Shown: positions 26,174 through 32,253 of the stretch, one piece after another | Numbering within the stretch: the first letter of the stretch is position 1 | Layout of the letters: each line of letters starts with the position of its first letter | NCBI GenBank assembly: GCA_024398055.1 | Contig: CP073749.1 | Location: forward strand, 3,844,594 to 3,908,593 | DNA length: 64,000 nucleotides | Source of the DNA: a bacterium SCSIO 12741 | GTDB lineage: Bacteria > Bacteroidota > Bacteroidia > Flavobacteriales_G > Salibacteraceae | Reading direction: 5' to 3' | Position numbers and translations under genes: made by a program | Notes under the pieces: generated by a model | What the model was told of the DNA's origin: nothing | Seen by the model: only the letters and a program-made list of their open reading frames with translations | The model's database searches: none

Positions 26174-27082
26174 ATGGTTGATATTACACATAAGAACAAT
26201 ACACTGAGGCAGGCCGTGGCTGAGGCTACGGTAAAAGTGAGTGATCCTGCAACCATTGCAGCCATTGAGAATAGACAAGTGCCTAAAGGAGATGTTTTTG
26301 AAATGGCCAAGGCCGCTGGGCTTTTGGCTGTGAAACGTACCTGGGAAATGTTGCCCGATTGCCATCCCTTACCCGTTGAGTATACGGGAATTCGATATGA
26401 GATTCAGGATCTTTCCATTCGGATTGAAATGGAGGTAAAAACCATTTACAAAACGGGTGTGGAAGTAGAAGCCATGCACGGAGCGTCTGTAGTAGCCTTA
26501 ACCATGTATGATATGCTCAAGCCTTTGGATAAAGGAGTAGAGATTCAGAACATTCGTTTGCTTCGGAAAAAAGGAGGAAAAACGGATTACAAAAACCGAT
26601 TCCAGGAAGGTGAGCTTAAGGCTGCCGTAATTGTCTGCTCGGATAGCATTTCTGCAGGGCAGAAGGAAGACAAAGCGGGGAAGGTGATTTGCCAAAAATT
26701 GGAAGCTGCGAATGTCCAGGTAGACCACTACGAGGTAATTCCTGATGAATTCGATCAAATTCAAAGCCAGGTAAATCACTGGTATGAAAAGGCAGATTTA
26801 CTGATTTTTACGGGAGGCACCGGTTTGTCTCCAAGAGATAATACACCTGAAGCCGTAAAGCCTTTGTTGGATCAGGAGATTCCGGGAATTATGGAGACCG
26901 CTCGAAATTACGGGCAAAATCGAATGCCTTATTCCATGTTGTCCCGAGGAATCGCTGGTTTAAAAGGAAACTGTATGGTGCTCACTTTACCGGGTTCTAC
27001 CAATGGAGCGAAGGAGTCTATGGATGCTCTTTTCCCTGCCTTGTTGCACAGTTTTCACATCATGGGAGGAGGGAAACACTAA
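26174..27082 (+). CDS. moaCB: Bifunctional MoaC-MoaB fusion protein
   Basis: A 302-residue fusion. MoaC domain (about 1-145): DVFEMAKAAGLLAVKRTWEM, CHPLP with a catalytic His, and MEVKTIYKTGVEVEAMHGAS, for cyclic pyranopterin formation together with MoaA. MoaB/MogA domain (about 155-302): AAVIVCSDSISAGQ, LLIFTGGTGLSPRDNTPEA and LTLPGSTNGAKES, which adenylate molybdopterin. Such moaCB fusions are known in Bacteroidota. No moaA or moeA is in the window, so the pathway is completed elsewhere. It is the last gene of the operon. Confidence 0.93.
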   Translation: MVDITHKNNTLRQAVAEATVKVSDPATIAAIENRQVPKGDVFEMAKAAGLLAVKRTWEMLPDCHPLPVEYTGIRYEIQDLSIRIEMEVKTIYKTGVEVEAMHGASVVALTMYDMLKPLDKGVEIQNIRLLRKKGGKTDYKNRFQEGELKAAVIVCSDSISAGQKEDKAGKVICQKLEAANVQVDHYEVIPDEFDQIQSQVNHWYEKADLLIFTGGTGLSPRDNTPEAVKPLLDQEIPGIMETARNYGQNRMPYSMLSRGIAGLKGNCMVLTLPGSTNGAKESMDALFPALLHSFHIMGGGKH

Positions 27083-27172
27083 GTTTAGGTTATAAACAAT
27101 TGTTGATAACTGATGTTGATGCTTGGTTAATAAGTACTTAGCTTGTTTTTTAATCTCGGATACAAGTTTTCC

Positions 27173-27180
27173 TATATTTG
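27173..27180 (+). promoter_or_regulatory. -7 box TATATTTG for the candidate RNA
   Basis: A perfect TAnnTTTG match about 90 bases after the moaCB stop. The only TTG in reach (27143-27145) is 27 bases upstream, longer than ideal, so the promoter is likely but not certain. Confidence 0.5.
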
Positions 27181-27617
27181 AGTAAGCAATTCAATCAAAC
27201 ATCGTTCTTTGAACTACCTTCCGGCAAAAATCAGCAACCATTAAGCGCTGAAAGACAGAGAGTTTCTTCGGATACTCAACGTTGAAAAAACTTCGGTTTC
27301 AAAAAGCATTGATGGGATAGTTAGGAGCTGAAAAAATTCTAATGATGATGATGCCTGTGGTTATCCAAGAAATGAAGGTTGCAAAACCCTCATAACGAAG
27401 GTAACTAACAGAAGGACAACCGTTCCTTACGGGGATAGCAGTTTGAAGCGAACTTTTTCCGGAGTTCAAATCAATTTGCGGCCTACGGGCAGGAAGTCTG
27501 AAAGTGGAGGGGACAATCTGAAACGGTTCGCCGATTCGATTGGATCAAGGTTGAAATGTGCGTCATTTAGTCAAATAAATGTCGAAAAAAAGAGTCCGCT
27601 TCGGCGGACTTTTTTTT
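27181..27617 (+). ncRNA. Candidate structured non-coding RNA, about 435 nt
   Basis: No ORF over 70 codons that ends before the terminator. Several hairpins with stable tetraloops: 27260-27277 (stem GAGTTTC/GATACTC, one mismatch, UUCG loop closed by C-G), 27282-27302 (UUCG loop closed by C-G, with a bulge), 27377-27388 (GGTT/AACC, GCAA loop), 27412-27428 (AAGGA/TCCTT), 27450-27467 (GAACT/AGTTC) and 27481-27490 (GCC/GGC, UACG loop). A promoter-like box precedes it and a strong terminator ends it at 27617. I see none of the signature segments of RNase P RNA, tmRNA or SRP RNA. A peptide of 17 codons from 27342 begins with four ATG codons; whether it is translated is unknown. The class is not recognised. 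Confidence 0.55.
27593..27617 (+). terminator. Strong intrinsic terminator, probably bidirectional
   Basis: Perfect 7-bp stem AGTCCGC (27593-27599)/GCGGACT (27604-27610), loop TTCG, T-tract to 27617. A run of A precedes it (27585-27591), so the leftward PorP-like gene ending at 27621 may also use it. Confidence 0.9.
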
Positions 27618-27620
27618 GTC

Positions 27621-28616
27621 TTAATTCTTGGCTAAGGTCACCGCTTTTTTAGAAACTGTTTTTAGAAAACGATAGGATAGTTGAAGGCTGGTAAGTAGGT
27701 AAAACTCGTCATGGTAGTATGGCTTGTTGGGTTCATAATCACCGTTGAGCAACACCTGAATGCGATCGCCCTCATAGCCCAGATAACCTGTCAACCACAG
27801 GTCTCTTGATATAGGATCGTAGAAATAATCATCCAAGCTCGCACCTCCACCAATTCCGATAAGAAAATGATCAAAAAGTCGGTTATTAAAATGCAGGGTA
27901 TAATTAGAACTTCCACCTCGACTGCTGAACATTAAACTGGCTCCAGGTTTCCATTTTCCATTGAAGGTGGACGCAAAGAATCCGGTAGTAATGTACAGGT
28001 TTCGTTGTTCCAGGTAAGCTCTATGTCCTGCTGCCTGCAACTCCTTGCTTCTTTCATTGTCAAAAATCCTGGAGAGGGATGCACCAACAAAGGCGTTTTC
28101 CGTTTTCCAGTAAATTCCCAAATCCATATTGATTTCCTCCTCAATATAGTCCTGAGGATAGAAGATGTCTGAATGAGGAGAAATGAGGTGAGGTTCGTAC
28201 AAGTTGAAGCCCTCTTCGTAGTAGGCATAAAACGGCCGGGCCCCAATACTAAGAATCCCATCCTTTATTTTAATCGGGAGGGTAAAGTTTAGGTAGCCCT
28301 GTTCTTTTCTGAGGTAGCTGCCATATCCTGATTTTGAGTCGTGAAGTGTTCCCGAATAGCCCATTCCTAAGGCCAACCTGGATTTGTAACTCGGAAGTTC
28401 GATAGCAAGCTGTCCCTGATTGTAATGGGAAAAATCGCTAACCGCCGTAGCGCTGATCTTAAGATCGGAGGCATTCATGGCCGCAGGATTGAAGAATTGG
28501 GGAAAGAATAAATAGCTACCCTGAGATTCTTGAACGAAGAAAGAGCCCACCCGGTTTTGTCCAATAGCGAGGAGGGAGAATAGTAGACTGATTAACAGAA
28601 GAGGAAGGTGCTTCAT
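27621..28616 (-). CDS. PorP/SprF-family type IX secretion-associated outer-membrane protein
   Basis: A 331-residue exported protein with a signal peptide and the PorP/SprF pattern: FFPQFFNPAAMNASDL near the start, beta-barrel strands, NEEIN-like DLGIYWKT and the C-terminal GYEGDRIQVLLNGDY. PorP/SprF proteins anchor in the outer membrane and connect the T9SS to gliding adhesins. No other T9SS core gene is adjacent; a second copy is at 31279-32253. It converges with the RNA candidate. Confidence 0.8.
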   Translation of the reverse strand: MKHLPLLLISLLFSLLAIGQNRVGSFFVQESQGSYLFFPQFFNPAAMNASDLKISATAVSDFSHYNQGQLAIELPSYKSRLALGMGYSGTLHDSKSGYGSYLRKEQGYLNFTLPIKIKDGILSIGARPFYAYYEEGFNLYEPHLISPHSDIFYPQDYIEEEINMDLGIYWKTENAFVGASLSRIFDNERSKELQAAGHRAYLEQRNLYITTGFFASTFNGKWKPGASLMFSSRGGSSNYTLHFNNRLFDHFLIGIGGGASLDDYFYDPISRDLWLTGYLGYEGDRIQVLLNGDYEPNKPYYHDEFYLLTSLQLSYRFLKTVSKKAVTLAKN

Positions 28617-31183: not shown

Positions 31184-31278
31184 GGCAATTTGAATTCGAT
31201 AGACGCAAATATGACTCAAAATCTTGAAGCAGGTTGCCTGCTTAAGAAGGATTAACTGACTTGATTTGTTAATCAAAC

Positions 31279-32253
31279 TTAATACCAGAAGGCCTCACAG
31301 GGTGTACGTCGAAACCTGGCTCGAAAATGACGACGGCGAAAAATCGCCATCTGAACGGCCAACTGATGATTCCAGCTTGGGGATTCAAAAGCAGGTCTGC
31401 CTAAATCGTTTTGAATACTCAGTGAATAGAGTATCCGGAAGGGATGAAATCGATAACCGAGGTGGTAAAGTAGGCGGTAGTATCGTTTGTGAGAATAGGT
31501 ATAGCCTAAACCCAAAGAAATTTCTTTGTCTATATAGGCCAGATTTATACTTGCCTCGTTAATGTCTTCTGGGGTATCAATTGAAGAATCGGTTGGCATT
31601 TGCTGCCATTGATAGAGTACCACGGCATTCAAATGTTTGTGGAGGCGTCCAGTTAAAATGCTTCTCCCTGCAAAGGCGGTAAGACCAAGCGGAACGTCGA
31701 ATGTGCCTTTTGACGAGAAATACCAGGAAATGGGATTGTTTACTTGTAAGCCCAGTGCCCAACCACCTCCATAGGCAGCCACGGCAAAATGGTTGTCCAG
31801 ATAGGAATAATCTCCAGGCGAATTCGAGGGCAATTCTGCATAACCTGGATCAAATGTTGCTTTCCTCCGCGATTGGTAATTGTATCCCAATACCATTCCG
31901 TATCCCAAGGATAGTCGACGATTGACATTATGACGAATGCTGTAGTTTCCGGAAAAGGAGAATTGCTGAGTGGAACCTGGGGTTTGCTCATAATACCCCA
32001 ATAGACCTATACCTCCTCGAACGAATCGGCTTCTTAATCTGGATTGAAAAGCCAAAGTATTACTGTTTCCAACACTATTCGCTTGATTCAGATAGGTTAA
32101 GGCAGTGGAACCGTAGGATTGGCAACTTGATAAGGCAGCATTGAAGAAGAGGTGGTTGTTGCTTTCGGCATAGGGAAATAGGAGAGACTGTGCATGAAGA
32201 TAGGGCCCGGTAAAGGCCATAAATGAAAGTATGGCAAGTCTCAAAAAGCGCAT
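31279..32253 (-). CDS. PorP/SprF-like outer-membrane protein
   Basis: A 324-residue exported protein with signal peptide (LAILSFMAFTGPYLHAQ) and the PorP/SprF-type pattern NHLFFNAALSSCQSYG then alternating strands (GYGMVLGYNYQ, GWALGLQVNNPISWYFS, LTAFAGRSI). More divergent than the copy at 27621-28616; the NPAA motif is NAAL here. A role in the T9SS or gliding is inferred from family only. It starts 80 bases beyond the TfoX-like gene and probably shares its transcript. Confidence 0.65.
   Translation of the reverse strand: MRFLRLAILSFMAFTGPYLHAQSLLFPYAESNNHLFFNAALSSCQSYGSTALTYLNQANSVGNSNTLAFQSRLRSRFVRGGIGLLGYYEQTPGSTQQFSFSGNYSIRHNVNRRLSLGYGMVLGYNYQSRRKATFDPGYAELPSNSPGDYSYLDNHFAVAAYGGGWALGLQVNNPISWYFSSKGTFDVPLGLTAFAGRSILTGRLHKHLNAVVLYQWQQMPTDSSIDTPEDINEASINLAYIDKEISLGLGYTYSHKRYYRLLYHLGYRFHPFRILYSLSIQNDLGRPAFESPSWNHQLAVQMAIFRRRHFRARFRRTPCEAFWY

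What the first reader, a model, noticed from the sequence alone, without database searches (positions are those of the whole stretch)
27173..27618. Unassigned, probably structured RNA behind the molybdenum operon
Seen: a 538-base gap with no credible gene, a perfect -7 box (27173), at least six short hairpins, two with UUCG loops closed by C-G, one GCAA and one UACG loop, then a perfect 7-bp UUCG terminator with an eight-base T-run (27593-27617). Known: UUCG, GNRA and UNCG loops are typical of folded RNAs, and the layout promoter-structure-terminator marks an independent RNA. I find no hallmark segment of RNase P RNA, tmRNA, SRP or 6S RNA. Inference: an undescribed Bacteroidota RNA, or a 3' element of the moa transcript.
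Basis: partly seen in the sequence, partly recalled or inferred. Interest (0 to 1): 0.75.

Follow-up and report, generated by a model that had tools for sequence, protein, structure and literature searches.

The report
Orphan tetraloop-rich structured RNA candidate
Behind a set of molybdenum-cofactor genes lies a roughly 400-base stretch that looks like the gene of a folded, non-coding RNA with an unusual number of very stable hairpins, but no relative was found in any other genome searched, so its structure and function remain unproven.

Summary
The observation largely holds. The 538-base gap (27083-27620) between the moaC/moaB fusion gene and a convergent PorP/SprF gene holds no recognisable protein, a perfect TAnnTTTG box (27173-27180), several good hairpins and a perfect terminator. 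Two points weaken it: no -33 element at the usual spacing, and the terminator also scores on the minus strand, beside the PorP stop codon, so it may simply serve two convergent genes.

The tetraloop richness is not chance: five UNCG hairpins in 404 bases (0 of 20,000 shuffles), the densest spot in 464 kb of this genome, plus strand only. A 5'-3' closing helix begins one base after the predicted start site. Folding energy without the terminator is unremarkable (z about -1).

No Rfam family matches; RNase P RNA and tmRNA lie elsewhere. It is single-copy, with no homologue in the 41 other genomes of its order, 394 of its class, plasmids or phages, whereas the genome's RNase P RNA is found in 36 of 41 relatives by the same search. 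Covariation is therefore untestable.

Best reading: an orphan, lineage-specific structured RNA (about 50%); rivals are a 3' UTR of the moa transcript or non-functional spacer.

The parts
27173..27180 (+). TATATTTG, match to the Bacteroidota -7 box TAnnTTTG; by the -12 to -5 placement known from F. psychrophilum it predicts a start at 27185
   Evidence: Sequence; placement from PMC9723704. No -33 TTG at 17-23 bases
27185..27617 (+). Proposed transcript (about 433 nt to the end of the T-run; folded body 27186-27561)
   Evidence: Inference from promoter box, closing helix and terminator
27186..27561 (+). Closing helix P1: 27186-27196 with 27549-27561 (10 bp)
   Evidence: Mean pair probability 0.95; end closure reached by 3 of 200 shuffles; core stays above 0.8 for assumed 5' ends 27123-27187; lost when sequence from 27083 or moaCB is included
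27217..27511 (+). Helix P2: CCUUCC 27217-27222 with GGAGGG 27506-27511
   Evidence: Mean pair probability 0.96
27260..27277 (+). Hairpin with C(UUCG)G loop, GAGUUUC-UUCG-GAUACUC, one U-U mismatch; competes with other pairings in the fold
   Evidence: Sequence
27282..27302 (+). Hairpin with C(UUCG)G loop and an A bulge; competes with other pairings in the fold
   Evidence: Sequence
27320..27343 (+). Hairpin Ha, 7 bp
   Evidence: Mean pair probability 0.86
27355..27411 (+). Hairpin Hb, 11 + 8 bp with internal loop, capped by a GCAA (GNRA) tetraloop
   Evidence: Mean pair probability 0.86-0.98
27424..27435 (+). Short hairpin UCCU-UACG-GGGA
   Evidence: Sequence; weakly supported in the ensemble
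27438..27479 (+). Hairpin Hc, 8 + 7 bp
   Evidence: Mean pair probability 0.92-0.95
27481..27490 (+). Short hairpin GCC-UACG-GGC
   Evidence: Sequence; weakly supported in the ensemble
27514..27542 (+). Hairpin Hd, 11 bp, UUCG loop closed by G-C
   Evidence: Mean pair probability 0.98
27586..27617 (.). Bidirectional intrinsic terminator: 7-bp GC-rich core with UUCG loop, extended to 14 pairs by flanking A and T runs
   Evidence: Scan on both strands
26174..27082 (+). Context: bifunctional moaC/moaB gene upstream
   Evidence: NCBIfam PRK03604.1 equivalog over cut-off, Pfam
27621..28616 (-). Context: convergent PorP/SprF-family gene downstream
   Evidence: Pfam PF11751

Best explanation
The stretch from 27185 to about 27617 (+) is the gene of an orphan, lineage-specific structured non-coding RNA of about 375-430 nt. 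It is read from the -7 box at 27173, folds into a multibranched molecule closed by helix P1 with arms capped by UNCG and GNRA loops, and ends at a terminator shared with the convergent PorP/SprF gene. Its most likely mode of action is as a stable regulatory RNA in trans, pairing or binding protein through the A-rich joints between the stable arms. Shown: the sequence elements, the tetraloop excess, single copy, lack of detectable homologues. Inferred: transcription, the fold, and any function.
For: Five UNCG hairpins in 404 bases, 0 of 20,000 shuffles, the densest place in 464 kb of this genome and strand-specific. 5'-3' closure reached by 3 of 200 shuffles and ensemble entropy by 7 of 200 on the + strand only. 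Predicted start 27185 from the -7 box one base before P1. G+C 43% in the body against 30% in the preceding spacer 27083-27172. No protein. Perfect terminator.
Against: No homologue in the order or the class sample although the same search finds RNase P RNA in 36 of 41 relatives; folding energy ordinary without the terminator; no -33 box; the terminator is explained by the convergent gene too; under a stricter tetraloop rule another place in the genome equals it. The tetraloop test was prompted by the finding itself, hence post hoc.
Confidence: 0.5

Rival explanations
1. It is the long 3' untranslated region of the moa transcript: transcription runs on from moaC/moaB to the shared terminator, and the hairpins protect the mRNA end or release a 3'-derived small RNA after processing.
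For: Same strand as moaC/moaB; the scan finds no terminator between its stop codon and 27586; no -33 element for an own promoter.
Against: A perfect -7 box sits 91 bases behind the stop codon; helix P1 is lost in folds that include moaC/moaB or all of the spacer; relatives have no such stretch behind moaC/moaB.
Confidence: 0.22
2. It is non-functional spacer between convergent genes, such as decayed sequence, and the hairpins are chance apart from the shared terminator.
For: No homologue at all, ordinary folding energy without the terminator, incomplete promoter, post hoc choice of the stretch.
Against: Strand-specific tetraloop excess that shuffles do not reproduce, end closure and low entropy on one strand, no trace of a decayed protein.
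Confidence: 0.24
3. It is a diverged member of a known RNA class or part of a mobile element.
For: Size and 5'-3' closed shape resemble RNase P RNA or tmRNA; 6S RNA was not found in the genome with RF00013.
Against: Full RNase P RNA and tmRNA genes lie elsewhere; no Rfam family aligns beyond weak, mostly terminator-based matches; single copy without repeats; no plasmid or phage match.
Confidence: 0.04

Closest known systems
Independent intergenic sRNAs of flavobacteria, for example Rfp18 of Flavobacterium psychrophilum (PMC9723704)
   Same: Intergenic, predicted strong hairpins, sigma-A type TAnnTTTG -7 box, intrinsic terminator
   Different: Rfp18 is expressed, conserved in other species and has tested targets; none of this is known here. 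No sequence comparison with Rfp18 was made
Bacterial RNase P RNA (RF00010)
   Same: Similar length and a closing 5'-3' helix with several arms
   Different: No RF00010 match here; the true gene is at G000:C1:837364-837707
tmRNA (RF00023)
   Same: Similar length (about 390 nt); a short AUG frame lies inside (27342-27395)
   Different: No tRNA-like domain found by ARAGORN or Rfam here; the true gene is at G000:C1:367747-368139

Membership tests
Any described Rfam family | Score at or above the family's gathering threshold | tested here: not met
   0 matches in the whole window; relaxed search gives only sub-threshold matches, the best ones ending on the terminator
RNase P RNA class A | Match to RF00010 | tested here: not met
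   Only match in the genome is at 837364-837707
tmRNA | tRNA-like domain and match to RF00023 | tested here: not met
   ARAGORN finds nothing in the window; the gene is at 367747-368139
6S RNA | Match to RF00013 | tested here: not met
   No match in the genome; weak test, since the model rings in only 5 of 14 control genomes
Independent bacterial sRNA gene | Own promoter | tested here: inconclusive
   Perfect -7 box but no -33 element at 17-23 bases
Independent bacterial sRNA gene | Intrinsic terminator | tested here: met
   Perfect stem and T-run, but bidirectional
Independent bacterial sRNA gene | Discrete transcript | not testable with these tools
   No expression data available
Conserved structured RNA class | Homologues with covarying helices | tested here: not met
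   No homologue found by blastn or covariance model, with RNase P RNA as positive control; no same-genus genome is held

The most novel reading that the evidence does not exclude
A large (about 375 nt), intricately folded RNA of a new class, confined to one poorly sampled Bacteroidia genus, acting as a scaffold or ribozyme rather than as a simple antisense regulator.
Probability: 0.1. Interest if true: 0.7.

Novelty: new member of a known kind. Interest (0 to 1): 0.33.

Why it matters
If transcribed, it would be an orphan structured RNA of a sort that comparative methods cannot see, because they need homologues, and a test case for whether tetraloop density can flag real RNAs in a single genome. 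If not transcribed, it is a caution against reading RNA genes from hairpins alone.

Tried and rejected
Known RNA classes: Rfam at gathering and relaxed thresholds, ARAGORN, and RNase P, tmRNA and 6S models on the genome.

Hidden or decayed protein: eight of the nine six-frame segments of 25 aa or more (all but 27486-27566, minus) against Pfam and PHROGs, and three of them against NCBIfam, gave nothing significant.

Repeat or mobile element: single copy, no array, no plasmid or phage hit.

Homologues: blastn, local nhmmer and blastn on about 1.1 Mb of fetched loci, a 194-position covariance model made from this one sequence (run with Infernal's stricter filters), and synteny behind moaC/moaB in relatives. 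Matches of 20-40 bases were taken as chance. Two exact scans of viral contigs: none for a 23-mer; eight for a 17-mer that extend at most to 22 bases, taken as chance.

Folding energy as evidence was rejected, since the terminator drives it. The 17-aa frame 27342-27395 was considered and judged chance.

Full report
What is there. The gap 27083-27620 lies between a bifunctional moaC/moaB gene (26174-27082 +), the last of a molybdenum cluster of transporter, regulator-like and cofactor genes, and a convergent PorP/SprF-family gene (27621-28616 -). No reading frame in it resembles a protein family.

Promoter and terminator. TATATTTG at 27173-27180 fits the sigma-A -7 consensus TAnnTTTG, which in F. 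psychrophilum occupies -12 to -5 (PMC9723704); that predicts a start at 27185. No TTG lies 17-23 bases upstream, so the promoter is plausible, not established. The terminator is perfect, but the scan reports it on both strands and it abuts the stop codon of the convergent gene. It therefore does not by itself mark an independent RNA.

Structure. The fold of 27182-27620 scores z = -3.37, but without the terminator only -1.2 (27182-27585) or -1.0 (27186-27563), and 200-base windows are ordinary. As controls, RNase P RNA of the same genome scores -2.9 and tmRNA -1.8. Other measures do single out the + strand: few shuffles reach its ensemble entropy (7 of 200) or its end closure (3 of 200), while the minus strand is ordinary. 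The closing helix P1 begins at 27186, one base after the predicted start. Its core keeps a probability above 0.8 for every 5' end sampled from 27123 to 27187, but is lost if the sequence starts at 27083 or includes moaC/moaB. Helices P2, Ha, Hb, Hc and Hd have mean pair probabilities of 0.86-0.98; the short UNCG hairpins at 27260-27302, 27424-27435 and 27481-27490 compete with other pairings.

Tetraloops. With a stem of at least 3 bp, 27182-27585 holds five UNCG hairpins (27292, 27428, 27458, 27484, 27527). The one at 27458 is doubtful, because the same stem, Hc, can be read with a UUCC loop. Dinucleotide shuffles give 0.31 on average; none of 20,000 reaches five and 0.02% reach four. In 464 kb of this genome on both strands no other 404-base window exceeds four, while this one reaches seven if the terminator is counted (two of the seven, at 27595 and 27600, lie in the terminator). 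With a stricter rule (C-UNCG-G and at least 4 of 6 outer pairs) the stretch has three including the terminator, and one other place in the sample equals it. So the excess is clear under the first rule and less unique under the second. RNase P RNA and tmRNA, whose loci were in the sample, do not stand out by this measure, so it is a peculiarity of this stretch and not a general mark of RNA genes.

Known classes. Nothing in Rfam reaches threshold in the window; relaxed matches are mainly to terminator-bearing families. RNase P RNA and tmRNA are elsewhere; 6S RNA was not detected by RF00013, a model that also misses most of the control genomes.

Conservation. The stretch is single copy. The held genomes include no other species of its genus. 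blastn finds no homologue in the 41 other genomes of the order, 59 relatives (only 23-40-base matches), 394 other genomes of the class, plasmids or phages. The same method with RNase P RNA of this genome succeeds in 36 of 41 relatives, so sensitivity is adequate for a housekeeping RNA, though not for a fast-evolving one. A covariance model of 27352-27545 built from this single sequence found only itself. In relatives moaC/moaB is followed by other genes, and 80 named loci around moaC/moaB homologues, whose closest members are uncultured Flavobacteriales MAGs, show nothing similar.

Judgement. The sequence looks like an RNA gene by anatomy, strand-specific tetraloop excess and 5'-3' closure, but the one test that settles such claims, covariation, cannot be run. 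A structure predicted from one sequence is not evidence of function (PMC8250186). I put 50% on an orphan structured RNA, 22% on a moa 3' UTR, 24% on non-functional spacer and 4% on a diverged known class or mobile element. Mechanism is inference only: stable capped arms with A-rich joints (33% A in the body) suit a long-lived trans-acting or protein-binding RNA.

Noticed in passing
27586-27617: The terminator credited to the RNA is bidirectional and lies three bases from the stop codon of the convergent PorP/SprF gene.
   Followed up: yes
27342-27395: A 17-aa frame MMMMPVVIQEMKVAKPS with four successive ATG lies partly in hairpin Hb; probably chance.
   Followed up: partly
31201-31400 (minus strand): The strongest local fold of the 200-base windows sampled in the window (z = -4.0 with 25 shuffles), at the junction of two minus-strand genes.
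   Followed up: no
27621-28616 and 31279-32253: Two PorP/SprF-family genes lie close together on the minus strand.
   Followed up: no
L129:15242-15281 (G000:C1:265242-265281): A DUF805b RNA motif elsewhere in the same genome reaches Rfam's gathering score.
   Followed up: no
G000, whole genome: No 6S RNA found with RF00013; the model misses most control genomes too, so this may only reflect the model.
   Followed up: no
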